From positions 1 to 64,000 of IMG/VR virus record IMGVR_UViG_3300042863_001519: a stretch of 64,000 nucleotides of DNA. One strand, given 5' to 3'. The notes beneath the pieces were generated by a model. It did not search any database, was not told the origin of the DNA, and saw only the letters and a list, made by a program, of their open reading frames with translations. The stretch comes from a virus. A program made the position numbers and the translations under genes. Of this stretch, positions 3,001 to 53,981 are shown piece after piece (positions within the stretch are counted from its first letter, which is position 1; each line of letters begins with the position of its first letter).

Positions 3001-6000
3001 GGAACAGTTGAATACTTACTGGATGGGTCAGGTTAACAGACTTGTTGACATGATGATAAAAGAAGGGCTTGTTAGTACAGATAATAAAAGAATACTTGCA
3101 CCAAGTTATCTTTTTAAAGGCTTTGGTGGTAAGAATGCTAATTTGATGAATGAAAAGATGTATTTGATAAAGAATAACTTCATGCATAACATTTCACAAG
3201 TGTTCATGAATGACTTCTTAAATACATCTGCTGTTAACAAACTTCTTCATGGAGATGAATCAAAGAGCTTTAAACTTTTTGTTGAGCAGGTAAAACGTGC
3301 TGCCGGTGCTAATGCTGCTGGCCCATCTATTGAAAGTATTGTAACTAAAGATGAATGGGGCATAAGTCATAAATTAACAAATGTATACCATGTTACTTAT
3401 AAAGACACTGAGTTTTTGAAAAGGTCTGGTGAAAAAGGTGAGCAAGACGATGGTCAAATGTATTGTACAGTTAAAGGTTTGAGATACATGCTTTTTGGTA
3501 TGGGTACTTTGAAGCAAGTACAGGTAGATATCTTAAACAAGATAGAAAGGGGAGATGTTGTTACTAAAGAAGAGTTTTTTAAAGCAGGTGGTATTCAGGA
3601 TATGAAAGCTGCTTTTAATCCTTTAAAGATGGTTTACTTTGATGGTAAAACATACTTAAAGTGCTCTGTACAAATGCTCTCAAAAGAGTTTACTTCATAT
3701 TGGAGTAAGACTAAAGGTAAATGGGTTGCTTATCCAGGTAAAGAGAACTTGCATAACATTAGGTTAAAACTGGAGAACTTTGAGAAGAAGAATGAAACCA
3801 TAACTTTTGCTCATCCTGTTCAGGTATCCAAAGGCATGAAGAAAGCAGTTGCTTCAAGTATTGCAGCTATTACTGATAAAAACTTTAATAAGTTACCTGC
3901 AGACTACATGAGGCAGCAATTAGAGAATCCGTCAGGCAAGTTAAGCATGACAGATCCTACTCAAAAACTGCAACAAATATTTGCCGAGATACCTGCAAAT
4001 AGCACAGTGTATCTTAATGGTAAAAAAATGACAGGTAAAGAGGCAGTTGATAACTACCTTGACCTGATTGCAAAAAGAGCAGCTATAAATTATAAAATGA
4101 AAAGAAATGGCATTTTTGATATCAAAGATGCTTTTAATGAAATATCCATGTCTTATCAGACAGGACAAGTTACAGCCAAGCTAGCTAAGTTTTATGATTT
4201 GTGTTATGAAAATTTGATGGCTACTGGTGCAGATGCTCAAACACTTGAGTTCTTCCGTACAAAAGACGGAGAGGTGGTATACGACCTTAATTTCCCTGCT
4301 ACCTTACCAAAGTACACCCAGTTGTTTCTTGCATATTTTAGCAGTGGTGCATTCCAAGCTAAGGTACCAGGGCTTACTCTTACCCTTATATCAAATGCTC
4401 ATCATAAAACAGTTAAAAGACTTATTTCTGTAGATGAGCAAGGTCAACCAAAAGAGTGGGAAGTTATAACTCGTGAAATGTTTGATGCTGATCCAGAGAA
4501 GTATACTAAGTCTCTTATTCAATATACACAAGACGATGATGGTACTACTCTAAAAAGAATGTTTACTGGCCTTGAAGAGAAACTAGCCACAGGTAAACCT
4601 GTATACTATCTTGATGATCTTAGGGACAATGTTGGTATATACAACAGTGATGGAGAACGTATAGAAACTTACAGTGAATATATTACTGCAAGTCATTATG
4701 AAGAAGAAGATTCTGCAGTAGAGTCAAGTTTTTCTGTACGTATACCATCAGACGATAAACACTCTTACATGAATGCAAGAAGAGTGGATGTTTTACCTGT
4801 ATGGATGGGCTCTACTGCTATGTTTCCACAAGAGATTATGGAAAAAAGTGGTACTGACTTTGACTTGGATAAGGTTTATGTATCTATACCAGACACTTAT
4901 GCAAAAGATGATAAACGTGTTGCATATGGTTCTGCTACTACAGATGCGGAAAAGTTTGAAGAGTATGTAACTTGGCAGTACAATAACAATAAAGCTTTTA
5001 AGAACAATGTAAAAGCTTCAATGAAAGAAGATGCTTCATTAACAGAAGTAATAAAAGAAAAAGCTGAACTTAATGAAACTCAGTCTCAATTAATATCTAA
5101 GATCTTACAAGCAGATAGAGATATTCAAAAAGAAAAACAGACTAAACACCTTCTTTTAACTGCATCTGGTTACATTTCTGCTAAAGGTATATACCTTCAA
5201 GATTTTAAAGATGCTAAAAAGGCTATTGTAAACAACTATAATAACGGTAAAAAAACTGCAGACGAACTTGAGGAAACAATTAAAGCAACAAGAGATTGGC
5301 ATATCCTCAAAGTCCTTGCAGAAATGAAAATGCCAGCATCGGTTGCACAGTTTAACAAAGAAGGTGGTGAAGAAATTAACCCCGGTGTTATAAACAATAA
5401 AGTGCTTGAATCTAATCAATCGTTGTTAAGTTCTGAAGCAGTTGCAGGTGGAGAAAATCCTATTCTTAATCAACCTACAAGTACTGATGCATTTAAGATA
5501 TTTGCTGAAACAATAAAAAGAGAGTTAGCAGGTGCTGATAGTGAGTATGCCATTGACCTGTTAAACAGAATTACTGACAAGAAAGAAGATACTAGTTCAA
5601 TGTTGGGCAAAGAAATATCTCGTGATACTAATGCACAAGGTAGAGATAACATTGGTGCTGCTGCAAATGCTGTTATCAATTACTCTATTAATAGCACTTT
5701 TGGTCTTAATTTAAAAGGTAAAAAGATTACAATAGACGGTAAAGAGTATAACTCATATACAAATCTTAAAGCTTGGAATGGCAATGCATTTAGTGGTGAG
5801 AGAGTATTTGCATCTCTTTCTGCTATCGAGAATGCAATGACAGATAATGCCAAGTTTGCTTATTCTGGTAAGTATGGTTTAAGTATTGGTGCAGTTGGTT
5901 ATTTATCTAACATGGTCTCTCAAGGTATACCTTTTGAAACAGCAATGTTATTTATAATTCAACCTACTGTACAAGAATATTTTAGACGTATTTCAAATCT

Positions 6001-9000
6001 TTCTTCTAATCTTAAAACTAGTGAAGAGAGTTCTCTTAGCAAGTTTCAGATTATGCAAGAGCTTGAAGATTATATTGTTGCTAATCAAGAAGAAGAAGAA
6101 GAAGAAAAAGAACAAGAAGAAGAAAAAGGGGCAGAAGAAAAGAAAAAATATGACCCTACTTCAAGAGAGGCAATGATAGATAATATCCGTAATAATAAAA
6201 TGTCACTTGAGATTTTTGATATTCTTAAGACAATAGATAAGCAGTCTATGGATCTGATGGAGTTCTCAAAAATTCTTAAGATAACACAAGGTATCCCTGT
6301 TTCCTGGGAAGAGTTTGATGATATCAAAAAAGCAATGAACAAATTTGGTTTGATTGATGCATCAACTGAAGAAAAGGATCTTAGTATTGATGTTAAACAA
6401 ATCATGAAACATGACCATAAGTTTATGGCAAAGTATATTGAAATGTTTCGTGACCTTGATGCTTTATCTGCATTTGTGTTTGTTGAAAGGAACCCTCAGT
6501 TTATGCAGGTAATGGATATTGTAAAAGCAAACTTTGATGTACCATCATCAGACAAAAAAGAGTTTAACAATAGTTTGAAGCTAAACTTGCTTTCATATTT
6601 CTCAATTAGTGCATACAAAAAATATCTTGATAAAGAGGGACTTGGTTCATATGTTACTTCATTGAATCATGCAATGATATACCCTGAAGTTCTTGCAAAA
6701 GAAACTAATTATGAAGATGCTATTGATATTGTAGTAAAATTAAAAAAGAAGTTTGCTGAAGAGAATACTCCAAACTATTTTATCAACTACATTCTTAACA
6801 TTGTTGATGCAGGGGACAATGTATCTAAGATTAATAAGGTAGAAATAAATAGTTGGGCAAAGCTTTCTCCTTACCAACAAGAGAAGATAATAGATGGTTA
6901 TTTGCAACTTTACAGCAATAAGGATACACATATTGATGCAGTTGCTTTATTTCACTATTTGTTAGTAAAAGATGGAGGGCAGTTTAAATCAGGTAGTTTT
7001 ATTCGTTATATTCATAATGGAGTCTTTAAAAACTTATTGAATAGTACAGCTGATGTAAACAGACTTTTATCTGATAAAACTGCAGATGATGTTGCATATA
7101 ATGAAGTATTTGGTAAAACAATGTCGGAGCTGGTTGACGGTTTTCTTAAATCATATGCTACTTGGGCAGGTAATGAAACTTACATAAAGCAAACAACGAT
7201 TTTTGCTCCTGTACTAAAAAATAAAAACTCTCCTATTTATCTTGACAGAGAATCAAAAGTTCTTTACGTTGATTATAAAATGGGTATGGAATCAGTTGAG
7301 GTCAATGAAGGTGACAGTAAATTCATGTCTAGGTTACGAGATATGGAAGATAATGGTTTTGGTTACGAGTTTGAGGAAATTGTTTACAAAGACAAAAAGA
7401 CTGGTAAGGATAAGAAAAAGAAGACAGTAAAAATTAGTTTCCCTTACTCTATAATGATAAACAATCAGCTTTACATTTTACAGGCAGTTGACAAAGCTGA
7501 ACCTGAAGGTGCACAAGATTTTGTCAACATGCTTGGAGTAGACCAAAGTATTGCAAAAGGTTCAAGAGCTAGGTATATTCAAGGTAAACTAAGAGGCAGT
7601 AAAGAACAATGGGGAGGAGCAGCTGTTTTTGGTAAAATGCCTATAAGAGAGGAAATAGTTGTTCGCAATGAACAAGTAATTAATAATCCTCCTTATTCAT
7701 CAGATGTGCCTTCAGGTAAGAATATTGTAACCAAGACTCAAGAAGTAGTTAATACTGGTACCAAAAGAGATTATGATGAAACTGCAGAGTTGGGTAGTAT
7801 AAAGAATCCTTACAAGGCAGTAATGAACTTTACAGATGGTGATGGTGGTAGAAATATGAAACCTGAATTTGCTGGCAAGTCTACTATGGATCTTATTCTT
7901 TCTGGTGATCGTACTGGTACTACAAGAGACTTGACAAAAGACTACAACAGGCTTCCTGTTAAAACAGATGACTTTATTGAGTTTTCAGATAAATTAGGTA
8001 GAAAAGCACTTGTACGTGTAACAGAGACATGGACTTCTATTAAAAACGTAGATGCAGAGTCTTGGAGTGATATAGAAGGTTGGGATAAATCTGTGTACAA
8101 TAATCTCATTAGCAAAAAAGAAGCTCAGTATAAACAACTTCAATTTGTTCTTGTAGATACTGAACAGAAAAATTTGATTGTTGATAACATAGAAGATGTT
8201 AATGATTTAGATGCAATTAATGCTTTAAAAAATCAATTTGGATTGTTTGTTTACAGAAATGGTGATAAATTTGGCATAGGAAACATTGCTACCAGTGAAA
8301 CTCCTCAACAGATGTTAAAACGTCATGTTGATGCTACTGAAAAACAAGAAGTTTCTACTCAAGCTCCTATATCAGAAACTACTAATACAGGTATACAGTA
8401 TCCAAACAAGCCGGAGTTTAATAAACTTCCTGTAAAACTGGGTAAACCCACTATGACATATGCTGGTATAGGTAGTAGAAGGACACCTGCAGAAATGCTA
8501 CCCCTTATGACAGAATTGGCTAAAGAGTTAGCTGCTAAAGGGTACACATTAAACAGTGGTGCTGCAGAAGGTGCTGATAGTGCTTTTGAAGCCGGTGCTA
8601 GTACTAAAAAGGACATATTCCCAGGTAATATAAAGACAGGTAAAAGAGAGCTTATGATAGCTGAAGAGATACATCCTAATTGGGGTGCAATGATAGCTGC
8701 TGCAAAAAGGAATGCTATTCAAAAAGGAAAAAATCCTGAAGCTGCTGCTGCATATGTAGCTAATCTAATGGCAAGAAATACCAATCAGGTATTTGGTAAA
8801 AACCTTGATACTCCTGTAGATTTTGTACTTGCATATACTCCTGATAACTTAACTGACTATACAAAGAGAACTATAGACTCTGGAGGTACAGGGCAGGCTA
8901 TAGACATGGCATCAAGAAAAGGTATACCTGTTATCAATATGGCTGGCCCTAACTGGAGATCTCAACTTGATGCAGTGATTAATAGGCAATCTTCTATATC

Positions 9001-35505: not shown

Positions 35506-36444
35506 TTACCAATCTATCTCAGTTGGTGCTACTTTAGGACTTTCTTCTCCATCTTCTTTAAAGGTATTGTCACCAGTAACTTGATGGATACTTGGGTCAA
35601 ACTTCTTCAAGAAGCAAAGCTCAAATGCACCTTTGCAACCATATTTACCAATAGCTTGTTCGTGCCATTTACTCACAGCTTTATCAGCATCCCAGTTTTT
35701 GGTAGACATTGCAAATGCAAACTTCTTAAACTTGTAACTAGAGATAAAATCACCGTACAGGTTCTGATACATTTTTGTATCACCATCTTTCTCTACTATA
35801 CCTACAAATGCAAGAGCTGCAAATGGAGAAGCAAGAGAATTACCATCACCTTTTAACTGACTACGGTATTCTTTTTCAATATAGTTATCCAGATTGCGAA
35901 ACAGTTTTCCTTTATCAAAAAGAATATTGGTCTTTTCTGAAAAGAAGTTTGCTTTTCCCAACCAAGCTTGGAGGAAGTTGTAGAAGTCAGCTTCACCTTG
36001 TATTGCCTCACGAACTTTCTTCTTACCAGTAAGAGGGTTACCATCTTTGTCTTCAGTAATAAGATTACCATTCTTGTCTTTAAACTCTGTAAACCACGAT
36101 GGGAGATTTTCCTCACTATCTACCCAAGTAGACATACCACTTTGGTTCACAAACTGTTTCTTACCAGATGCTTCAGAAACTACTTTCTTATCTACTATAC
36201 GGAAACGGTGATTAAACTTCTGCTTGTCGGCAGTCTGTGCTTCCATCCAGAAACTCAAAGTCAGAACTTCTTCTTGCTTATCGTTCTTGGTTTCATAAAC
36301 TTGCTCACTGGCATTATCTTTCAGCTTATAGTCTAAAATTTCAGCAAGCTCTTCTTTAGAAGGATTGATTGCTAATACTCGGTCCATCATTGCAAATCCT
36401 ACAAATAACGGACGTTCTTGGGCACTACTCTTTTCTAATTCCAT
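35506..36444 (-). CDS. putative single-stranded DNA-binding protein
   Basis: 312 aa. Central region is beta-rich with conserved aromatics and a GKKKVREAIQGEADFYNFLQAWL segment, followed by a basic stretch and an acidic C-terminal tail ending KVAPTEIDW. An acidic tail with a final hydrophobic residue is the layout of phage SSBs that recruit replication partners. It lies between primase and the Sak4-like ATPase. The SSB call rests on layout and context, not on a clear OB-fold motif. Confidence 0.5.
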   Translation of the reverse strand: MELEKSSAQERPLFVGFAMMDRVLAINPSKEELAEILDYKLKDNASEQVYETKNDKQEEVLTLSFWMEAQTADKQKFNHRFRIVDKKVVSEASGKKQFVNQSGMSTWVDSEENLPSWFTEFKDKNGNLITEDKDGNPLTGKKKVREAIQGEADFYNFLQAWLGKANFFSEKTNILFDKGKLFRNLDNYIEKEYRSQLKGDGNSLASPFAALAFVGIVEKDGDTKMYQNLYGDFISSYKFKKFAFAMSTKNWDADKAVSKWHEQAIGKYGCKGAFELCFLKKFDPSIHQVTGDNTFKEDGEESPKVAPTEIDW

Positions 36445-36480
36445 AATTTAATTTATTTTTATTTGTTTACTTAATTTTTA

Positions 36481-37194
36481 CTACAGTGAATAATACTCAG
36501 ACATACGATCAAAGATATACTTACCATCATTTGGTATTTCCAGATGATTGTTGCCGTTTTTATCCGGGAACATGCCTTCTGGTACCTTGGTAGATGTATC
36601 CATTTCAAAAGTCTTTAGGAAGTACTGTGGTTTACCATCCTTCATTCTTGTACCTGTGTACAATACAATAGTAAAGTGTTGCTCGATTTTGCCTTCGAAC
36701 TCTTTACCATGTACCGACATCATTCTCTTCTTACCCTCACCCTCTACTTTGAGCCATTCGTCATGAGAGAATACAATAACATCCTTCTCAATGTTTTTGA
36801 GAATCTCAATGTACTCATACACCTGACGATTGTAATTCTTGTAAATATCAAAGCCCTGAAAGTTCATTGCCATTTCCTTGTTCAGTGTATTGAAAGCCAT
36901 TGTCTGACTATCAATAATAATCTGTTTGATCTCAGGATTAGCTCCAAACTTCTCAAGGTTGTCTTTGAACGATGCCCATGTCTTTGGCATACCCATAAAT
37001 TTGAAAGGTCCACCATCTTTATAAGGAAGTGGTTTCCTCTCCATGTTAATGTAACCGGTTGTGTTCCGGTCTGCTGTTTTTGACAAGTAGGACTTACCTG
37101 CACCTGTCGGTCCTACAACAGCTAATTTGCCGTAGAACGAACGCTTTAATGAAGATGCTTGTTTCTGCTCTTCACCACTTTTTTGGTTTTCCAT
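36481..37194 (-). CDS. Sak4-like RecA-fold ATPase (AAA_24 type)
   Basis: 237 aa. Walker A is VVGPTGAGKS near residues 27-36; Walker B is KQIIIDSQTMAF, followed by VIVFSHDEW as sensor. The small single-domain RecA core matches phage ATPases of the Sak4 group, which promote single-strand annealing with SSB. The adjacent SSB-like gene fits that pairing. A second recombinase beside RecA in one phage is notable. Confidence 0.75.
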   Translation of the reverse strand: MENQKSGEEQKQASSLKRSFYGKLAVVGPTGAGKSYLSKTADRNTTGYINMERKPLPYKDGGPFKFMGMPKTWASFKDNLEKFGANPEIKQIIIDSQTMAFNTLNKEMAMNFQGFDIYKNYNRQVYEYIEILKNIEKDVIVFSHDEWLKVEGEGKKRMMSVHGKEFEGKIEQHFTIVLYTGTRMKDGKPQYFLKTFEMDTSTKVPEGMFPDKNGNNHLEIPNDGKYIFDRMSEYYSL

Positions 37195-37202
37195 ATAATT
37201 GA

Positions 37203-37571
37203 TTAATTGATTACTGCTTTAAAGATTTCTTTTACTTTGGCATCTAGTAGTTCCTTGTTATCTGAAAGTACACCGTTAAGTATCTTGTTACCTTGACTTT
37301 GCCATCCAAATGAGTGTGAGAAGAAATCAGATAATTTTACTTGTTTGATTGTCTCTTGTATATGCTCATTTAATAGTTCTTTAAAGTTGGGTATCATATC
37401 CTGTACACCTTCTTTTACTAGATCTTTTGCCAGTTTTCCCATAAGCACTCTTCCTCTTTCACCAGACACTGATACATCTCCTACACAGTTCCTGACATGC
37501 TTTCTTATCTCATCTGTCACTATTTGCTTTATCTCTTCTTCTGAGAGATAGTCTTCTATTTTTATTTCCAT
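37203..37571 (-). CDS. hypothetical helical protein, 122 aa
   Basis: Amphipathic helices throughout (YLSEEEIKQIVTDEIRKHV, LLNEHIQETIKQV), no zinc or nucleotide motifs. Placed between the ATPase and helicase genes, so a replication accessory role is possible. A similar layout occurs in other phages as an uncharacterised protein. Confidence 0.55.
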   Translation of the reverse strand: MEIKIEDYLSEEEIKQIVTDEIRKHVRNCVGDVSVSGERGRVLMGKLAKDLVKEGVQDMIPNFKELLNEHIQETIKQVKLSDFFSHSFGWQSQGNKILNGVLSDNKELLDAKVKEIFKAVIN

Positions 37572-37584
37572 TTTTTATAGTTAA

Positions 37585-38694
37585 TTAATCAAGAAAATAT
37601 GCACCTGATGTTACTTGCTGGTATATCTCTTCCTTGATATCTTTCTTTCGAGGAAGGGTGCGAAAAATCCCATATTCCGGTTGTAGTGCCATAGGAAACT
37701 GTACACCATTTGTACCAAAGGAGTTTTTGAGAATGTGTAATGATCTGTAATAGGTTTTGAAAAATTCATCTCTAAAACCTTTCAGTACATAACCATTCTC
37801 TTTGTGTCCATCTAAGTCACCTACAATATGTCTGTATGGTTCGAACAATGCAAGAACAACATCAGCATCGTGTTGTGTTTGAGATGAATCAGCAAAGTCA
37901 CTGAGCTTTGGTGCTAAATCACCGAGTTTCAATCTTGATACATCGGCCAGGTTACGATTCAACTGTTGGATTACAACTGGTGAGAAACCATAGATGTCCC
38001 TTGCCTGTCTCATTACAGTACTGAACTTATCAATCTGTCCTTTAGACTTCTCAAGATCCTTCTCTGGTTTTAAAATACCAATGTGGTCAACAATAACCAG
38101 TACGATGTGATTAGGATGATTAGGAACATATGTACGATCAGCAAGGATATTTTCCATGCTTTTGTTACTCTTATCCTTGTCGATAATGGTACCGTGTTTC
38201 CTTGCAAATGCCTCTAGGTAAGCACTGATACCGGAAGGGTTCTTACTGCCCTCAAATGCTATCAGCAAGTCATCTGTTTCCCATTCATCTAGTATAGAAT
38301 AATTCATCTGTACCAAAGCATACTCCTGGTCATCCATCTTAAAGTTCTTCTGCCGACTCAATAGTTTTTTAGGTGGTATAGGAATACCCTGTTCTGTGAA
38401 TATCTTTCTAGCCAACCATCGTGCACTGTACTGGTACATCTTACGTTCCATACCAAACAGAATGATACTCAACTTGATATCAGGACTTTTGTTGTTCAGA
38501 TACCACTCTATAGGTCGTATCATGAACATATCTTGTGCCAAAGTGCTCTTGCCTGAGTTATGTACCAGTATTGGATCTTTTTGTGTTGCCAGATAGAAGT
38601 TGTTATTATCTTCTACCGATATGTCATATGTTGTTTCGTAAGGAATCTCCTCAAATGAAACAATATCCTGAAGATTTATAACAGATGCTTCCAT
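37585..38694 (-). CDS. dnaB: replicative DnaB-type helicase, C-terminal part, fused to split-intein C half
   Basis: 369 aa. Residues 1-46 are the intein C-terminal fragment: block F TYDISVEDNNNFYLA and block G ILVHN, with Ser47 as the +1 residue. From Ser47 the helicase resumes with SGKST, the second half of Walker A. Other DnaB motifs follow: IVLVIVDHIGIL (Walker B), VVIQQLNRN (H3) and TQHDADVVLALFE (H4). This part alone cannot bind ATP; it needs ligation to the N part at 39187-39636. Its ATG overlaps the HNH gene end by 19 bases. Confidence 0.9.
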   Translation of the reverse strand: MEASVINLQDIVSFEEIPYETTYDISVEDNNNFYLATQKDPILVHNSGKSTLAQDMFMIRPIEWYLNNKSPDIKLSIILFGMERKMYQYSARWLARKIFTEQGIPIPPKKLLSRQKNFKMDDQEYALVQMNYSILDEWETDDLLIAFEGSKNPSGISAYLEAFARKHGTIIDKDKSNKSMENILADRTYVPNHPNHIVLVIVDHIGILKPEKDLEKSKGQIDKFSTVMRQARDIYGFSPVVIQQLNRNLADVSRLKLGDLAPKLSDFADSSQTQHDADVVLALFEPYRHIVGDLDGHKENGYVLKGFRDEFFKTYYRSLHILKNSFGTNGVQFPMALQPEYGIFRTLPRKKDIKEEIYQQVTSGAYFLD

Positions 38695-39221
38695 GTTCTT
38701 TTTTGTATTATATTTTTAACAACATCAACTGTAGTTCCAAACTTGTCAGCAAGTTCCTTTCTTGTCATACACAATTGACCATTCTCATCATACTTGTTCT
38801 TTCTCCCATGCTTCCACAACTTTCTCATCTCTATCACATCTTCATCTTTTAAATTAGTGTGAGGGTTTCTTTCACCTGTAATGTTTCTTCTTTTACAAGT
38901 AAATGACCATTTCTGATTCTCACTTGCTGTACACCACTCCAAGTTAATAAGCCGATTGTCTGTACGGATATGGTTAATATGATTTACCTGTGGCTTGTTT
39001 TCAGGATTAGGAAGAAATGTTTTTGCTACTATCCTGTGGACTTTTACAGTTTCGATTTTCCCCTGATCATTTTTTAACATTGTTCGGAGATAACCTGAAC
39101 CATCTAAAGCAGGTTTCATTATTCTTTCCTGTCCTGTATTTTTCCAGTTGTAGGTCTTTATTTCACCATCTGTACTAACTTCATAACTACTGTATCCCGG
39201 TATCTTTTTCCATTGCTTCAT
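38676..39221 (-). CDS. NUMOD4-HNH homing endonuclease between split-intein halves
   Basis: 181 aa. Starts like free-standing NUMOD4 proteins (MKQWKKIPGYSSYEVSTDG), then an HNH core (HRIVAKTFLPN, QVNHINHIRTDNRLINLEWC), and ends with a helix-turn-helix-like DNA-recognition domain (MTRKELADKFGTTVDVVKNI). It lies in a different frame from both helicase fragments, overlapping each, and has its own TATCTTTG-N4-ATG promoter-start signal. It probably cuts intein-less helicase alleles and so spreads the whole insertion. Confidence 0.9.
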   Translation of the reverse strand: MKQWKKIPGYSSYEVSTDGEIKTYNWKNTGQERIMKPALDGSGYLRTMLKNDQGKIETVKVHRIVAKTFLPNPENKPQVNHINHIRTDNRLINLEWCTASENQKWSFTCKRRNITGERNPHTNLKDEDVIEMRKLWKHGRKNKYDENGQLCMTRKELADKFGTTVDVVKNIIQKRTWKHLL

Positions 39222-39636
39222 GTTGCAAAGATAGTAATAAATCTTTGATTTTCACAAACTTTTCCCCGGTAAAAAATTCATGATTTTCGGTTACGTTTAT
39301 AACTGTTCCGTTTTTCATTTTTATTCTGAGTAGTTTGTCAACATGAGTCTTATGAGTTATGGTATTGGTAACAGTTTTATACTCATTAACCTTGGTCTTC
39401 AGATTATAAGACAATACCTTATCTCCTACTTTTATTTGAGAAATAGGCATTACCCCTTGTTCTGTATGAACCAACTGTTCTCCAGTAAAACAACCTGTTT
39501 CTCCCCCAATAACATAACCTGTATTTTTAGCAATATCAATATAATCACCTACCCTGTCATAAGGTACAGGTATAATACCGGCTTTACCGTTTCTACCGTT
39601 CTCAATCTCTTTATGTAATTGCTCTGATAAACTCAT
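39187..39636 (-). CDS. dnaB: replicative DnaB-type helicase, N-terminal part, fused to split-intein N half
   Basis: 149 aa. Residues 1-48 are helicase and end in VIGGETG, the first half of Walker A. Cys49 begins the intein: CFTGEQLVHTEQG (block A), and NVTENHEFF (block B, TxxH). The intein N fragment is about 101 residues; its last residues overlap the HNH start in another frame. Together with the C part the rejoined helicase would be about 371 aa with Walker A GETGSGKST. No DnaB N-terminal primase-binding domain is present. The start at 39636 is coupled to the upstream stop. Confidence 0.9.
   Translation of the reverse strand: MSLSEQLHKEIENGRNGKAGIIPVPYDRVGDYIDIAKNTGYVIGGETGCFTGEQLVHTEQGVMPISQIKVGDKVLSYNLKTKVNEYKTVTNTITHKTHVDKLLRIKMKNGTVINVTENHEFFTGEKFVKIKDLLLSLQHEAMEKDTGIQ
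39226..39233 (-). promoter_or_regulatory. -7 promoter element of the intein-associated HNH gene (TATCTTTG)
   Basis: Exact TAnnTTTG on the minus strand, exactly four bases before the HNH ATG at 39221, predicting transcription start at or next to the ATG. Confidence 0.55.
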
Positions 39637-40115
39637 TATGCACTGTTTGATTCCGTATCATCGGAAAGTTCCTTTAACTCTTCATCTTTCCAGTATACAA
39701 ACTTACCACTGTTTAGATATGCAACAGTAGCTTTCATGTATTGGAAATCATTGTACGTTGGGTCTTTGTGAGTATAACTTGTTACCTTTCTTGACTCTAT
39801 TTCCACTTTGAGGCAGTAAAGCATATCACTATCATCAAAACCTGCTGCTTTCTTTGCTTTATTGTATGTCTCAAATGTTTTTGCTTTGTCATCTCTCAAA
39901 GCCCTTGTACCCTTAAACGTCTTTCCTTTAAACACAAAATTCATGCTTGCCGGGAATGTACACCACCACTGTTCAAACTCTTCAGGATATTCTATATTCT
40001 TTTTGTTCTTCTCTCTCACTGGCCTGTATTGCTCATGCCACTCCTCGTAACCACCATCAGGATTAGCCTCTAAAAAGACTTTGATGTTCTTAAATTGCTG
40101 TAGTGTAACTGACAT
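39636..40115 (-). CDS. hypothetical protein upstream of helicase, 159 aa
   Basis: Contains FEQWWCTFPASMNFVFKGKTFKGTRALRDDKAKTFETY, a Trp-rich segment reminiscent of phage replisome-organiser proteins, and an acidic C-terminus (KELSDDTESNSA). Position directly before the helicase suggests a loader or origin protein, but I cannot confirm it. A CGTAAATTT string lies upstream. Confidence 0.5.
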   Translation of the reverse strand: MSVTLQQFKNIKVFLEANPDGGYEEWHEQYRPVREKNKKNIEYPEEFEQWWCTFPASMNFVFKGKTFKGTRALRDDKAKTFETYNKAKKAAGFDDSDMLYCLKVEIESRKVTSYTHKDPTYNDFQYMKATVAYLNSGKFVYWKDEELKELSDDTESNSA

Positions 40116-40148
40116 AAAATGAGCTTATAAATTTACGATAAATAGTAC

Positions 40149-42224
40149 TTAAAACAAACTTATCTGACCACTTTCTTTCTCTTTTCTATCACGTTGATAT
40201 ATAGGAGAAATCTTGTCAATTATCTTATTGGTTGCACGTATGTAATACGTATAATCAATACCGTAGTCGTCCCAGTTTTCAGCACTAAAAGGTTTGTTGT
40301 ACAGTACCTGGAGCTCACTATCTGATTCACAATTGCTCTTCTCTGGACCTGTTTTATCACTGTTTGGGTTCTTCATCTTATACAACTTCTCACCAATACC
40401 TTTTGAGCAGTAATAACGTACTAGCTTGTTGAGATCAGTTACTGTACCAGTTTTTCTATCAACACTTCGATAGAAGTAATCCCTTGATGCTTTCTTGGCA
40501 ATACAGAAATCGAAGATGTTTCTATGACTTATCACAGTATCTTCAACCGGAATACCCTGAGTAAAGTACTTCTCTAATGCTATAGGAACAATACATTTAC
40601 TCTTGTTCTTGTGCAACTCATAACTTGTAAGGAAATCACCTTTCTTTTTTACTCTTTTGTCAAGAGGTTTGTCAATAACTATTGCTTTAAACTCACCATC
40701 TTTAAATACCCAGTCAGCTTTCTTTACTGCCAGATAATCATTAACGGATGTTTGTACAAACAATTCGTACTCTACATACTCCAAGTTACCAAGAATGTCA
40801 TTACCAACTTCTTCTTCCCATGTTTTACATGCATCATAATACTTCTGTACATAATCTTGATGAATCAGTACAGTAATACCATCGGTATTCATACTAGTTA
40901 TCTTGAGTGTTGGTATTTGTAGCAGATCCTCAGCTAACATAAATAGATCAACTTGACCACCAATAGTTACTTGCATACTTGCAAATGGGTCATATTGCCA
41001 ATCAAACCTATCACCAAGTCGGCCAAAATTCCCATTCATTACTAATTTATAACATTCTTGGAAATTATCATACTTCTTATCACCGGTTTCCTTATACAAC
41101 TTTTTAGCCTCTAGTCTCTTTGGAATGTTTATCACATATGCTTCATTCCACTTTGGTCCAAGGTGTGCAGGATAAATGTTTCTTTTACGTATGTTGTTAG
41201 GATACTGTGAGCCTACGTCAGCATCAATTAGTAGATAACCTTTAGGTATATCAATAATTCTAGGGTTATCTGCAGAGTGTACACCACCCTTTGCAAACAT
41301 TATTGTAATGTCAGTAAGAATAAATGGGAACTCCTGTTTTTCATTGAGATTAACCTTTGTCTTACCCAAGTTTGTAAAAAAGTTATTAAACTCAGCTGTA
41401 TCAAAATGAGTGTAGTCAGGAAAGCAATCCTTAAATCGGAAACCTGTTTTAGTTTTCCTCTCTTTTACTTTACTATACAACTGAGCTTCATTGATCTTTG
41501 CCAGATCCATGTACACTTTCTTGTTTAGCTCGGCACCGATCTTAACATCATTCCAGTTAATTGCAAGAGATGGAAACTTATACTCCTCAATAAGATCAAG
41601 TCGTAACTGTACTTTGTTCTTCCCTGCATAATCAGGATGATTAGTATTACCTACTGCAATGTTGTAGAGATTTGCTGTAGCAGCTACATCGTTCCAACAA
41701 TACTCAATAACTTCATCAATCTCTTCAGAAGTTAACTCTTCTTTACGAAAGTCAATAGGCAATTCTTCGATGTTACCATCTAAAGAAAACTCTCCAGCCC
41801 ACTTCAAAGAACATCTCTTGGCATCATTGTTGTAGTGAAACAACAGAAACAGATCAATCTGTTTGAAGTCAAGATAATGTTCTTTGTAGTGAGGTTGTAA
41901 TTCGTAGTTCCTATCATCAATCGTCTTTTGTGCAAACTCAAATATAGCTCTGATGATACGTTCAACCGGCCAGTGTATCCACAATGAACAGTTATCTACT
42001 ATAAACTGAAGTACTTGGGTATCAAAGTAAACTCCATTAAAAGTACAAAATCCCCATCTGTTATACTCAATTAAATGTTTTACAAGAGCATCTAATTGAT
42101 TTTTCCTAGATGAAATTTCATACTGAAATCTTTCATTAGTTTTTATATCAAGACCGCAAAACAAAAACATTGAGTAATAGGTTTCAATATCTATCACTTC
42201 TATTTTTAAATCTTCACTTTTCAT
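40149..42224 (-). CDS. family B DNA polymerase
   Basis: 691 aa. Replicative polymerase with 3'-5' exonuclease: Exo I VIDIETYY (D12, E14), Exo II FNGVYFDTQ, Exo III YCWNDVAA. The polymerase domain has motif A DADVGSQYPNNI near residue 335, motif B KLVMNGNFGRLGDR near 390, and motif C SMNTDGITV near 443 (NTD in place of DTD). The C-terminus is GQISLF, matching the QxxLF sliding-clamp-binding motif. Compact size fits protein- or RNA-primed phage B polymerases of crAss-like groups. Its start overlaps the GIY-YIG gene end by 11 bases. Confidence 0.95.
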   Translation of the reverse strand: MKSEDLKIEVIDIETYYSMFLFCGLDIKTNERFQYEISSRKNQLDALVKHLIEYNRWGFCTFNGVYFDTQVLQFIVDNCSLWIHWPVERIIRAIFEFAQKTIDDRNYELQPHYKEHYLDFKQIDLFLLFHYNNDAKRCSLKWAGEFSLDGNIEELPIDFRKEELTSEEIDEVIEYCWNDVAATANLYNIAVGNTNHPDYAGKNKVQLRLDLIEEYKFPSLAINWNDVKIGAELNKKVYMDLAKINEAQLYSKVKERKTKTGFRFKDCFPDYTHFDTAEFNNFFTNLGKTKVNLNEKQEFPFILTDITIMFAKGGVHSADNPRIIDIPKGYLLIDADVGSQYPNNIRKRNIYPAHLGPKWNEAYVINIPKRLEAKKLYKETGDKKYDNFQECYKLVMNGNFGRLGDRFDWQYDPFASMQVTIGGQVDLFMLAEDLLQIPTLKITSMNTDGITVLIHQDYVQKYYDACKTWEEEVGNDILGNLEYVEYELFVQTSVNDYLAVKKADWVFKDGEFKAIVIDKPLDKRVKKKGDFLTSYELHKNKSKCIVPIALEKYFTQGIPVEDTVISHRNIFDFCIAKKASRDYFYRSVDRKTGTVTDLNKLVRYYCSKGIGEKLYKMKNPNSDKTGPEKSNCESDSELQVLYNKPFSAENWDDYGIDYTYYIRATNKIIDKISPIYQRDRKEKESGQISLF

Positions 42225-42996
42225 TCTTTTTGGTTTTTATTCTATTATTTACAATAGGGTATCTATCATACATCAAAAGAAATTCCTTAATTTTTCTACA
42301 ATTTGCTGCATATATTCTTACAGTAGATGTTGCACAGTTTAAATAATTTGCACATTTTTCATCATTATTAAAAGTTTCAACAACTGTGTAATCTAAATTA
42401 CAAAGCAATAGTGTTCTTCTATTTTTAAAAGTTTTTCCTTTTGTTTTGCTAATTCTTTTTTCTATAGAAGATTTACTTTTTTTCTTACCTTTCCAATAAT
42501 CACTTATTTTCTTTTTATGATCAATTGTTAAAAGTTTTCCTGTATTTGCTGCAATAATTGCGGATAAAGTATTAGGGTGCTGAGGTCTTCCTTTCATTTG
42601 TTTTGATTTTTTTGCCTTAAAATCATCACTATGTCGAAAACCTGCATTTGTGCCGGCTATTTGAACAATATTGTACTTTAATTCTATTGGATATTTATCT
42701 AAATAAAATTGTTCACGAGAGAGTATAAATTTTATCATTTCTTGCTTTGAAACAAACTGACTTTTATCATACTGTTCAATAATCTCAAAATAAAAATTAT
42801 CTGCACCATACTTGTTATAAGCATTTTGCATCTTTTTACAACCGTGTACATTTTTATTTAGTTCTTTTAAATGTAGATGATACCTGTTACTAAAACTACA
42901 AAAAGAACTGCCTATATAAACTTTGTTTGAAATAGGAGTATATATTTGATATACTCCTATTTTTATACCTTCTCCTCTTATTAGTAATGATTTCAT
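42214..42996 (-). CDS. GIY-YIG homing endonuclease
   Basis: 260 aa from the ATG at 42996; a longer frame starts with a TTG at 43023 inside the promoter. The catalytic domain begins GVYQIYTPISNKVYIGSSF, followed by RYHLHLKELNKN and YGADNFYFEIIE. Downstream are two NUMOD-type DNA-binding segments (GFRHSDDFKAKKSKQMKG and the TGKLLTIDHKKKISDYWKG region) and a C-terminal helix-turn-helix (EKCANYLNCATSTVRIYA). Free-standing next to the polymerase gene, a classic homing position. A TATTTTTG element is four bases before the ATG. Confidence 0.92.
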   Translation of the reverse strand: MKSLLIRGEGIKIGVYQIYTPISNKVYIGSSFCSFSNRYHLHLKELNKNVHGCKKMQNAYNKYGADNFYFEIIEQYDKSQFVSKQEMIKFILSREQFYLDKYPIELKYNIVQIAGTNAGFRHSDDFKAKKSKQMKGRPQHPNTLSAIIAANTGKLLTIDHKKKISDYWKGKKKSKSSIEKRISKTKGKTFKNRRTLLLCNLDYTVVETFNNDEKCANYLNCATSTVRIYAANCRKIKEFLLMYDRYPIVNNRIKTKKNEK

Positions 42997-43000
42997 TTTA

Positions 43001-43008
43001 CAAAAATA
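43001..43008 (-). promoter_or_regulatory. -7 promoter element of the GIY-YIG gene (TATTTTTG)
   Basis: Exact TAnnTTTG on the minus strand, four bases from the ATG at 42996, with the same spacing as the other intein/intron endonucleases. Confidence 0.55.
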
Positions 43009-43070
43009 GTAAAATTTTATCAAAGTTTACGACTTTAAAAATAAAATCTCTAATCTGAGTTCTTCTGTCT

Positions 43071-47398: not shown

Positions 47399-49573
47399 TT
47401 AAAGAAATACTCCGTGTTGTTCTTCAAGAGAAGCTAACCATTTGTTAAACAGATGGTCTTGAAATGCTCTTGAGCAATCTTCATGTTTTGTAAGCAGGTG
47501 CTCATTTTCTTCTATCAAAGTAACAGCAATCTCTCTAATACCTTTTTCAAACTGCTTTGAGGAGATATAGATAGTATTGTTTTTTGCAAGACCTAGTACA
47601 GATACCTGGCTGAATGTTACTACTTCGATAGGATAACTTATCTCATACTTCATATCAGTGAGTGCTTCAACAGCTTTCTTCAGTTGATAATCCATTTTTG
47701 GAGTAGTCTTTACAGGAATGGTAAAAATATCATTATCTTTATCAACACCACATACTTCCACTTCTGGGAAATCTTCTTTGATCTTTCTTGCCAATGATTT
47801 TGAAACAATCAGATGCGGTTCTGTTAACCTGTCTACATAAAAACCACTAAGATCCTGATTGATAACTATCCTGTTACCAATTGCATCTCTCCATGCAGAG
47901 TTCAATTTACGATATGAATCATGAAACTCAAGAGTTGTCTCGATAAACATTGCATCTTTAAAGGCACACTGCATAATAGTTGATGCAACATCTTTAGTTG
48001 CATGTTCCATCAGAAAGTCTCTAATTATTCTTCTTGCACCATACATATTATCTATTACTCTACTCTCGTTAATAGTAAAGTCAGGAAGATCGTAATGATA
48101 CAATGCTTCGCCTGCATCATAACATCTGATACCTCTACGATACAATATTCTCTGGTGCTTCTTACAGATATTCGGAAATACTTTCCCTACAGGTAGATCA
48201 ATTATTGCATCTGTTCTATCAAATGAGAAGTAGGTATCCCAGTTGTTGATTACTTCTTTTATCTGAGCTACATGCTCGATATAGAAACGTGTGTAACCTT
48301 CTTTACCGGTTACTATTTCTGTACTGGGTATTACGTTATTCTCACCCTCGTCAATAGCATTAGATACAAACTCACGCACTGCCATCCAAGTATCCCACTG
48401 TGGTCCCATATCAGTAGTAAGAGATGTTTCCCTACCATCTATCAATATCTTCTCAAAGCTCTTATCTCTAAAAGCTACAGGTTCTGTTGATAGTACTAAC
48501 TCCTTCTCACCAGAGAAGATACGTAATCCTATCTTAGCTTTGAGTAAAAGAGCTATTGCATACTTGTTACCTGAGCCATCAGGTATGTTAACTTATAGTT
48601 TCCTATAAGATCGGACTATATCATCACCCTTCTCATTAAGAGTTAGGGGCCGGGCACTTATACTGGTAATTAAGAACACTATAGTTCTCCAGTAGTCTCT
48701 GAACCTTTATAGAGTGTACTCTATACTTGGATGCTGATTGGCATATCATTTCTGACTTAGCTTTCCAGCAGTTCACCTCGGTTTTTATTTTCATCCATCT
48801 CTGGAAGGGGTTTCATGGCTCTTTTGTAATTTCTAAGTTCTAAAATAGACATAGGTTTGAGATACTCTTTTTCAAAGTTGCAACTAGCAAAATCTTTAAA
48901 ATAATATCTGTTTGCAGAATCATAAAATATAGCAGCATAAAAAGAATCTTTAAATCTTCCAATTTTTGTTGGACCAGCTCCTTTTTTTATAGTAATTGAA
49001 GAGGAATAATAATGATAAATTTTTCTACCGTTATTATCAGATGTAAGTTGTACACCTCTATATCCGGTTTTATTATCTACCCTTAATAACTTCTTTTTAC
49101 TATTGTTTTCATTAGTACATACTCTAAGATTAACAATTCTATTGTCATCTTTTATGTTGTTAATATGATCAATTTGCATATTATCAGGAATTAATGTACC
49201 TGTATGCAAAAACCAACATAATCTGTGGTATGTGCTTCTATATTCTATATTATCTACTGTAATGTAGATACATTCTCTATAACCTTTTATTGTCTTTCTT
49301 GTGTAAAGTCTATTTTTACGAATGTTGTTTATCTCACCAGTATTGAGATCATAACTAAACATACGCTTGAACACATCTTTTACTCTTTCAGAACTTGCTT
49401 CATTAAATGTTTTTCGGACTCTTTTCATGAAGCAAATATACAAAATTTTATTCTTAAAACCCAATCATTGTAGTACTATCTCTCTTGGTAGAACCACCCA
49501 TCAGTGTGAGTGCATTTACATCAATTTGTCCTTTGTTCTCGATAAGGAGAAACTGCTTGTTTGTGTTTTCCAT
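47399..49573 (-). CDS. GHKL ATPase-like protein, gene interrupted by a group I intron
   Basis: Exon 1 is 49573-49456 (39 codons plus one base) and exon 2 is 48579-47399; joined they give 1299 bases, 432 aa, in frame. The joined junction reads MIGFYGSGNKYAIA. The protein begins MENTNKQFLLIENKG and has a GHKL N-box: REFVSNAIDEG (E109, N113, D116). It resembles an uncharacterised phage family with this IENKG...LMGxSTKR...GSGxKYA layout. The exact in-frame join is strong support for the intron. Confidence 0.8.
48757..49428 (-). CDS. intron-encoded HNH homing endonuclease
   Basis: 223 aa from the ATG at 49428. HNH core: YRSTYHRLCWFLHTG, then DHINNIKDDNRIVNLRVCTNENN, followed by the AP2-like DNA-binding segment (KTGYRGVQL and the RFKDSFYAAIFYDSANRYYF region). 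It would cut intron-less copies of the GHKL gene and drive homing of the intron. Its stop lies in the intron catalytic core. A TATATTTG element is exactly four bases before the ATG. Confidence 0.92.
   Translation of the reverse strand: MKRVRKTFNEASSERVKDVFKRMFSYDLNTGEINNIRKNRLYTRKTIKGYRECIYITVDNIEYRSTYHRLCWFLHTGTLIPDNMQIDHINNIKDDNRIVNLRVCTNENNSKKKLLRVDNKTGYRGVQLTSDNNGRKIYHYYSSSITIKKGAGPTKIGRFKDSFYAAIFYDSANRYYFKDFASCNFEKEYLKPMSILELRNYKRAMKPLPEMDENKNRGELLES
49433..49440 (-). promoter_or_regulatory. -7 promoter element of intron HNH gene (TATATTTG)
   Basis: Exact TAnnTTTG on the minus strand inside the intron, four bases from the ATG at 49428. Confidence 0.55.
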
Positions 49574-53441: not shown

Positions 53442-53981
53442 TTACACTGATTGATATGTTCTACCAGCACTAATATCCCTTATTACAGTCTCTTTTATTT
53501 TAAACTGTATAGCGATGTCTTTTACTTTCTTTTCTTTAGTTGCTAATAGTCTTTTTATTTCTATAGCATTTTCTCTAGACAGCTTTCTATTGCATATAGA
53601 TTGAAACTCTATTACTTTAGGCACATGATCAAACTTAGAGTAATGACCATGTACATATCTGCCATTTTGTTTTCCTTTAGCTTGTCTGAACTTGTTTACT
53701 TTATCTTGACAGTTGTCATTGTGTGTACCTACAGACAGATGAAAAGGATTTACACATGCTGGTACATCACAAGAATGCATGATTACTTTTCCTTCTGGTA
53801 TAGTTCTGTTATAGTAATACATATAAGCAACCCTATGTGCTCTATGATGTAGTTTACATCCATCTACAACTTCTTGAATAATACCATAGCCATCTCTACC
53901 TAGTCTTTTGTATAGTATACATTCGTTCTTATCTATATTCTGCAGATAAGGCTTTATTCTATTCATTACGCTTGTTGTCAT
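53442..53981 (-). CDS. HNH homing endonuclease next to the tmRNA
   Basis: 179 aa. HNH_3-type core: HRVAYMYYYNRTIPEGKVIMHSC, then CVNPFHLSVGTHNDNCQDKV, followed by a helix-turn-helix-like end (EIKRLLATKEKKVKDIAIQFK). A TATCTTTG element lies 16 bases before the ATG. The gene sits between the 3' end of the tmRNA and a second tRNA/tmRNA-like 3' end (53421-53440), so it is probably a mobile insertion that targeted this RNA gene. Confidence 0.88.
   Translation of the reverse strand: MTTSVMNRIKPYLQNIDKNECILYKRLGRDGYGIIQEVVDGCKLHHRAHRVAYMYYYNRTIPEGKVIMHSCDVPACVNPFHLSVGTHNDNCQDKVNKFRQAKGKQNGRYVHGHYSKFDHVPKVIEFQSICNRKLSRENAIEIKRLLATKEKKVKDIAIQFKIKETVIRDISAGRTYQSV

What the first reader, a model, noticed from the sequence alone, without database searches (positions are those of the whole stretch)
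37585..39636. Fractured helicase: split intein in the P-loop with an HNH endonuclease gene between the halves
The DnaB-type helicase is encoded as two separate genes. The N part ends its extein in VIGGETG, then Cys1 and intein blocks A and B. The C part starts with intein block F and G (ILVHN) and continues with SGKST. Rejoining gives a perfect Walker A, GETGSGKST. Between the halves, in a third frame and overlapping both, is a free-standing NUMOD4-HNH gene. Neither half can be a functional helicase alone. This matches the fractured-gene arrangement of split inteins described by Dassa and colleagues (2009), here in a crAss-like phage. The intein fragments are about 101 and 46 residues. A frameshifted ordinary intein is the alternative, but separate start codons, coupling overlaps and the dedicated promoter of the HNH gene favour a true split.
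Basis: partly seen in the sequence, partly recalled or inferred. Interest (0 to 1): 0.9.

Follow-up and report, generated by a model that had tools for sequence, protein, structure and literature searches.

The report
Split-intein helicase with homing endonuclease
A crAss-like phage makes its replication helicase as two separate proteins that a split intein should weld together, with a homing-endonuclease gene wedged between the halves; close relatives show that the whole package jumps between phages, and more distant ones suggest how such split genes could arise.

Summary
On the minus strand, an N half (39636-39187), a NUMOD4-HNH gene (39221-38676) and a C half (38694-37585) make a fractured DnaB-type helicase. 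The halves carry canonical class-1 intein blocks and rejoin at Walker A (GETG^SGKST). One detail is wrong: N and C halves share a frame and HNH is +1; the N/C frame holds 19 stops between them, so no sequencing error explains it. Five distinct alleles keep the arrangement, with purifying selection on all three parts. Sister phages have an intact 371-aa helicase with an exact empty site. Split and empty alleles alternate in at least four extein lineages. Intein plus HNH is 97-100% identical between helicases diverged at dS above 1, and always brings +1 codon TCA (Ser), replacing Ala once: homing as a unit. Trans-splicing is therefore well supported, though unproven chemically. It is a new member of the "fractured gene" class. 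Follow-up put it in a Walker-A-specific family found split in DnaB, primase-helicase and terminase genes. Related terminase inteins carry the same HNH nested out of frame inside one continuous intein ORF (0 stops observed, about 247 expected), a plausible precursor of the split state.

The parts
39187..39636 (-). N half of fractured DnaB-type helicase: N-extein (39493-39636, 48 aa, ends GGETG) fused to N-intein (39190-39492, 101 aa, Cys1, blocks A and B)
   Evidence: ORF; Hint/Intein_splicing; conserved in L001, L002, L004-8, L026
38676..39221 (-). free-standing NUMOD4-HNH homing endonuclease gene (181 aa), +1 frame relative to both halves; NUMOD4 39075-39215, HNH_3 38913-39044
   Evidence: purifying selection
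37585..38694 (-). C half: C-intein (38557-38694, blocks F and G, ends ILVHN) fused to helicase C-extein (37585-38556) that begins S+1-GKST
   Evidence: ORF; DnaB_C and Intein_splicing
38554..38556 (-). +1 Ser codon TCA, the C-extein nucleophile inside Walker A; TCA in every split allele, whereas empty sisters carry TCG or GCG(Ala) in three of four lineages
39226..39258 (-). Bacteroidetes-type promoter-like site TTTG-N21-TATCTTTG inside the N-intein coding sequence, ending 4 nt before the HNH ATG
   Evidence: 2 matches in the window, 3.5 expected by chance overall; identical across about 51 nt between window and L007 although the N-intein as a whole is 79% identical; motif at a similar place in 9 of 14 split relatives
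39187..39221 (-). N-half / HNH overlap (35 nt); the last codons of the N half are the other frame of the HNH start
38676..38694 (-). HNH / C-half overlap (19 nt); the C-half ATG lies in the HNH codons ..ACA.TGG.AAG.CAT..; ATG there in 14/14 split relatives, in 1/20 nested ones

Best explanation
It is a naturally split class-1 mini-intein lodged in the Walker A loop of the phage's only DnaB-type helicase, with a free-standing NUMOD4-HNH homing-endonuclease gene between the two intein-coding halves. The phage makes two polypeptides. Their intein parts (101 and 46 aa) associate, fold into one HINT domain, and ligate GETG to SGKST, giving the 371-aa helicase with an intact P-loop. The HNH protein, from its own promoter or by coupled translation, presumably cuts the unoccupied P-loop DNA in helicase genes of co-infecting relatives. 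Repair then copies N-intein, HNH and C-intein together with a short flank that includes the +1 Ser codon. Shown by sequence: anatomy, conservation, selection, empty sites, transfer as a unit. Inferred: protein trans-splicing, HNH cleavage at this site, promoter use.
For: Canonical intein blocks and catalytic residues (Cys1, TENH, HN^S) and Pfam matches. The two parts joined align end to end with the Spl DnaX mini-intein 7cfv (3.3e-6, residues 2-135). Same three-gene layout in 5 distinct alleles. Purifying selection, window vs L007: omega N-intein 0.08, HNH 0.10, C-intein 0.017, C-extein 0.036 at dS of about 1 or more, 0.6 for the C-intein. Sole DnaB_C in the record. Exact empty sites in 21 loci. 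In the extein tree each split allele sits beside an empty one: window~L009/L010; L002 and L026~L013-L016, L029; L004/5~L017; L006-8~L023-25. Cassette dS 0-0.14 against C-extein dS 1.1-1.4 for window vs L002 and L026. +1 codon always TCA; Ala(GCG) in the empty sisters of L006-8 against Ser in L006-8; 8 mismatches in the first 50 nt after the site in L004 vs L017, then 0-3 per 50 for the next 900 nt, a short co-conversion tract.
Against: No splicing or cleavage experiment. The C-intein Pfam match alone is weak (0.0026). One allele (L026) has a premature stop in HNH, so HNH is dispensable or the contig has an error. The promoter motif is no commoner in the window than expected by chance. All relatives are metagenomic contigs, some probably from the same populations.
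Confidence: 0.9

Rival explanations
1. A broken helicase: an ordinary intein gene fragmented by an endonuclease insertion or by frameshift error, no longer making helicase.
For: Neither half alone carries a complete P-loop; N/C frame has 19 stops.
Against: Layout and start codons kept across alleles with dS above 1 and low omega in all parts; sole DnaB_C; recurs in seven 80%-identity clusters including primase-helicases and terminases.
Confidence: 0.03
2. The HNH segment is removed at RNA level (an intron inside an intein), restoring a continuous mini-intein that splices in cis.
For: N and C halves are in the same frame; joining at the GAAGCA codons common to both edges would give a continuous mini-intein (...LQHEASVINL...; sequence inspection).
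Against: No Rfam match up to E=1 in 36000-42500; HNH coding fills essentially the whole insert, leaving no room for a group I or II core; C half has its own conserved ATG in all split relatives.
Confidence: 0.03
3. The two halves associate or work unligated, and the intein only performs N- or C-terminal cleavage.
For: Splicing was not tested.
Against: All splicing residues, including the +1 Ser nucleophile, are kept, and Ser stands in L006-8 where the empty sisters have Ala; the break lies within Walker A.
Confidence: 0.04

Closest known systems
Fractured genes with split inteins and free-standing endonucleases (Dassa et al. 2009, doi 10.1093/nar/gkp095; not held here; content from memory, its metagenomic nrdA/nrdJ cases are cited in PMC3653736)
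   Same: Enzyme of DNA metabolism broken by a split intein, endonuclease gene between the halves, phage context, possible control elements arriving with the endonuclease.
   Different: Here NUMOD4-HNH, in a Walker A loop, in a crAss-like phage; 35- and 19-nt gene overlaps; population data showing empty sites, co-conversion and transfer of the whole unit.
Salmonella phage S16 fractured UvsW (gp114 / gp114.1 / gp115, NC_020416)
   Same: N half plus N-intein, overlapping middle ORF, C-intein plus C half.
   Different: UvsW helicase, different middle ORF, intein outside the clade found here.
ShiLan element: out-of-frame 'hidden' HNH in a phage methylase (PMC11855218)
   Same: HNH in another frame of an otherwise open host ORF, as in the nested terminase relatives L055, L062, L129-L154.
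   Different: No splicing domains were found in ShiLan; the nested relatives here are real inteins; the window locus itself has 19 stops and is split.
P-loop inteins of mycobacteriophage terminases (PMC5050341)
   Same: Inteins in the Walker A motif of phage ATPases.
   Different: There the classic site is between the invariant Lys and Thr; here it is three residues earlier, G^SGK(S/T), and the intein is split.
crAss-like phages rich in introns and inteins (PMC7886860)
   Same: Self-splicing elements in core replication genes and TerL.
   Different: In that paper's main text HNH is not mentioned and the passages found on DnaB are not about inteins.

Membership tests
Fractured gene with split intein (Dassa 2009 type) | conserved enzyme coding region broken in two, each half fused to an intein half | tested here: met
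Fractured gene with split intein (Dassa 2009 type) | free-standing endonuclease gene between the halves, not in frame with them | tested here: met
   HNH 38676-39221, +1 frame
Fractured gene with split intein (Dassa 2009 type) | intein-less homologues with an exact empty site | tested here: met
   21 loci
Fractured gene with split intein (Dassa 2009 type) | halves ligated by protein trans-splicing | not testable with these tools
   residues present; needs co-expression
Class 1 intein | Cys/Ser1, block B TxxH, penultimate His, terminal Asn, +1 Cys/Ser/Thr | tested here: met
   C49; TENH; VHN^S
NUMOD4-HNH homing endonuclease | NUMOD4 and HNH_3 domains over curated cut-offs | tested here: met
   41.4 and 40.1 bits against 23.4 and 24.8
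NUMOD4-HNH homing endonuclease | site-specific cleavage of the empty allele | not testable with these tools
   transfer pattern consistent
Hidden out-of-frame HNH in a continuous ORF (ShiLan-like / nested intein) | host frame open through the HNH gene | tested here: not met
   window: 19 stops against 21.1 expected; met in 20 terminase relatives
Group I/II intron | catalytic RNA core at the insert | tested here: not met
   no Rfam match up to E=1
Crassvirales (crAss-like phage) | crAss-type RNA polymerase ORF and related replication genes | tested here: met
   no marker-gene tree was built

The most novel reading that the evidence does not exclude
The split state arose from a dual-coding intermediate. 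The same HNH gene sat out of frame inside a continuous Walker-A intein, as it still does in terminase genes of related phages, with the intein frame kept free of stops. Stops in that frame, plus a change making ATG just upstream of the C-intein (T to A, silent in the HNH Thr codon ACT/ACA), fractured the gene. The split cassette then spread across terminase, primase-helicase and DnaB genes by recognising P-loop DNA.
Probability: 0.5. Interest if true: 0.85.

Novelty: new member of a known kind. Interest (0 to 1): 0.64.

Why it matters
How split inteins arise and how endonucleases enter inteins are old questions. Here one HNH lineage is seen free-standing beside terminase genes, nested out of frame in continuous inteins, and between the halves of split inteins, the inteins all at the Walker A loop. 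Matched occupied and empty alleles in near-identical phages make homing of a whole fractured gene directly testable. It also gives a set of new natural split inteins with short C parts and +1 Ser, of possible use for protein ligation.

Tried and rejected
Sequencing frameshift: rejected (19 stops in the N/C frame, many contigs). Intron: no Rfam match. A second intact helicase in the genome: none found. Bacteroidetes promoter as a general phage signal: motif not above chance in the window (2 vs 3.5), so the promoter claim rests on position and conservation only; TAnnTTTG lies within 45 nt upstream of 11 of 41 distant HNH genes against 1.75 expected (some loci are duplicates). Target-site duplication around HNH (GAAGCA at both edges): the repeat is not kept in L006-8 (GAAACA), so it was not used as evidence. 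Sigma-70 scan: not clearly above shuffles. Genome-contig scan with the HNH alignment: 42 relatives, no intein context detected. Direction nested to split: not settled, because the root is weak and the split HNHs and split inteins each form one clade. Dassa 2009 could not be read.

Full report
OBSERVATION. The N half (149 aa) ends its extein in YVIGGETG and continues with C-FTGEQLVHT (block A) and VTENHEFF (block B). The C half (369 aa) has TTYDISVEDNNNFY (block F) and ILVHN (block G), then SGKST. Pfam supports a Hint domain in the N half, DnaB_C and a weak Intein_splicing match in the C half, and NUMOD4 plus HNH_3 in the middle ORF. One Intein_splicing match over the whole region spans 38557-39450 with 19 stops inside. 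Joined, the two intein parts align end to end with the Spl DnaX mini-intein 7cfv. The record is a 94.8-kb virus with a single DnaB_C match; the 2140-aa ORF and the helicase match crAss-like phages.

CONSERVATION AND SELECTION. A viral-contig scan gave 32 loci. Eight besides the window show all three parts with the same overlaps and start codons: L001 (identical), L002, L004/L005, L006-L008, L026; with the window that is five distinct alleles. Between window and L007 all parts are under purifying selection at dS around or above 1 (omega N-intein 0.08, HNH 0.10, C-extein 0.036; C-intein 0.017 at dS 0.6). L026 has a TAG in HNH while both intein halves are intact.

HOMING AS A UNIT. Twenty-one loci have an uninterrupted helicase (371 aa in most) with an exact empty site. 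In the extein tree the split alleles lie in four separate lineages, each with near-identical empty sisters. Window and L002 differ at dS 1.1 in the C-extein but only 0-0.14 across N-intein, HNH and C-intein; window and L026 likewise. Every split allele has the +1 codon TCA. Its empty sisters have TCG (L009, L017), TCA (L013-L016) or GCG, Ala (L023-L025); thus L006-L008 carry Ser where their empty sisters have an Ala that could not serve as nucleophile. L004 against its empty sister L017 shows 8 mismatches in the first 50 nt downstream of the site and 0-3 per 50 nt over the next 900 nt, a short co-conversion tract. This is what double-strand-break repair after endonuclease cutting leaves behind. 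The cut itself is inferred.

PROMOTER. TTTG-N21-TATCTTTG lies inside the N-intein coding sequence and ends 4 nt before the HNH ATG. The motif is no commoner in the window than chance predicts, so the case rests on its position and on conservation: about 51 nt are identical between window and L007 although the N-intein as a whole is 79% identical, and L004 keeps both boxes while changing two spacer bases. TAnnTTTG occurs upstream of 9 of 14 split relatives.

A WALKER-A FAMILY. Scans with the HNH and its alignment gave 147 unique relatives for which the frame could be scored. Fourteen unique split cases fall in seven 80%-identity clusters: this helicase, primase-helicases (L179, L182, L183, L186, L188, L194) and terminases (L174-L180), all inserted just before SGK of Walker A. 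Split HNHs form one clade (96/86), and so do the split inteins (93/95), with matching sub-groups, so intein and HNH travel together.

NESTED RELATIVES. Twenty unique relatives (14 clusters) sit in inteins of terminase-type genes whose ORF runs unbroken through the HNH gene, which is read in the same relative frame as in the window. They have 0 stops in the intein frame where synonymous-codon shuffles of the same genes expect about 247 in total; split relatives have 306 against 305, and the other 113 have 2593 against 2743. In an AlphaFold2 model of L055 the terminase and intein parts are mostly of moderate to good confidence, whereas residues 130-289, the dual-coded stretch, are below pLDDT 50, as expected for a filler. 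The C-half ATG of split loci corresponds mostly to TTG, CTG or GTG in nested loci (14/14 ATG against 1/20, Fisher 1e-8, not corrected for relatedness); in the window and L055 this is ACA.TGG against ACT.TGG, silent in the HNH frame. A third state exists: HNH genes standing directly upstream of, and overlapping, the terminase start. Nested-to-split is the easier path (few changes, against the removal of some 20 stops in reverse), but the tree root does not decide it, and the HNH could have entered the two intein groups separately.

KNOWN OR NEW. The window locus meets the tested defining features of the fractured-gene class; that class is known, and S16 UvsW is a cultured example. An HNH hidden out of frame in an insertion is known from ShiLan, but that element has no splicing domain. 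I found no paper in the held library describing out-of-frame HNH genes inside genuine inteins; the library is partial.

Noticed in passing
L055 2062-4137, L062 676-3510, L129-L154, L160, L172, L173, L191-L193, L205, L133: Terminase genes with a continuous Walker-A intein that carries a NUMOD4-HNH gene in another frame, with no stop in the intein frame over about 560 nt (dual coding).
   Followed up: yes
L040 1756-5319 (contig of L007): A second fractured gene next to the split helicase: apparent DNA polymerase A halves with N- and C-intein parts and a Vsr/EDxHD-like ORF (3266-4282) between them (assigned by eye).
   Followed up: partly
L031/L043 and L032/L045; L044: Class Ia ribonucleotide reductase fractured by a split intein with a GIY-YIG-like ORF between the halves; L044 has a continuous mini-intein without endonuclease at the same site.
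   Followed up: partly
L046 3-2030 and 517-1341: DnaX-like gene with a continuous intein frame while another frame of the same DNA encodes a Vsr-like nuclease; same nested logic with a different endonuclease family.
   Followed up: no
NC_020416 (L127) 3314-6040: Salmonella phage S16 UvsW is annotated as two DNA helicase genes with an overlapping ORF between; both carry intein halves.
   Followed up: partly
L155-L171, L185, L195: Free-standing relatives of the HNH lie directly upstream of terminase genes; in L155 and L161 an ATG for the downstream gene lies inside the last HNH codons (..TCATGGAAGCAC..).
   Followed up: partly
window 42214-43023, 49099-49227, 53712-53843: Further homing-endonuclease-like genes: GIY-YIG type beside the DNA polymerase gene, and two more HNH_3 matches.
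   Followed up: no
L026 4474-5016: HNH gene with a premature TAG while both intein halves stay intact.
   Followed up: no
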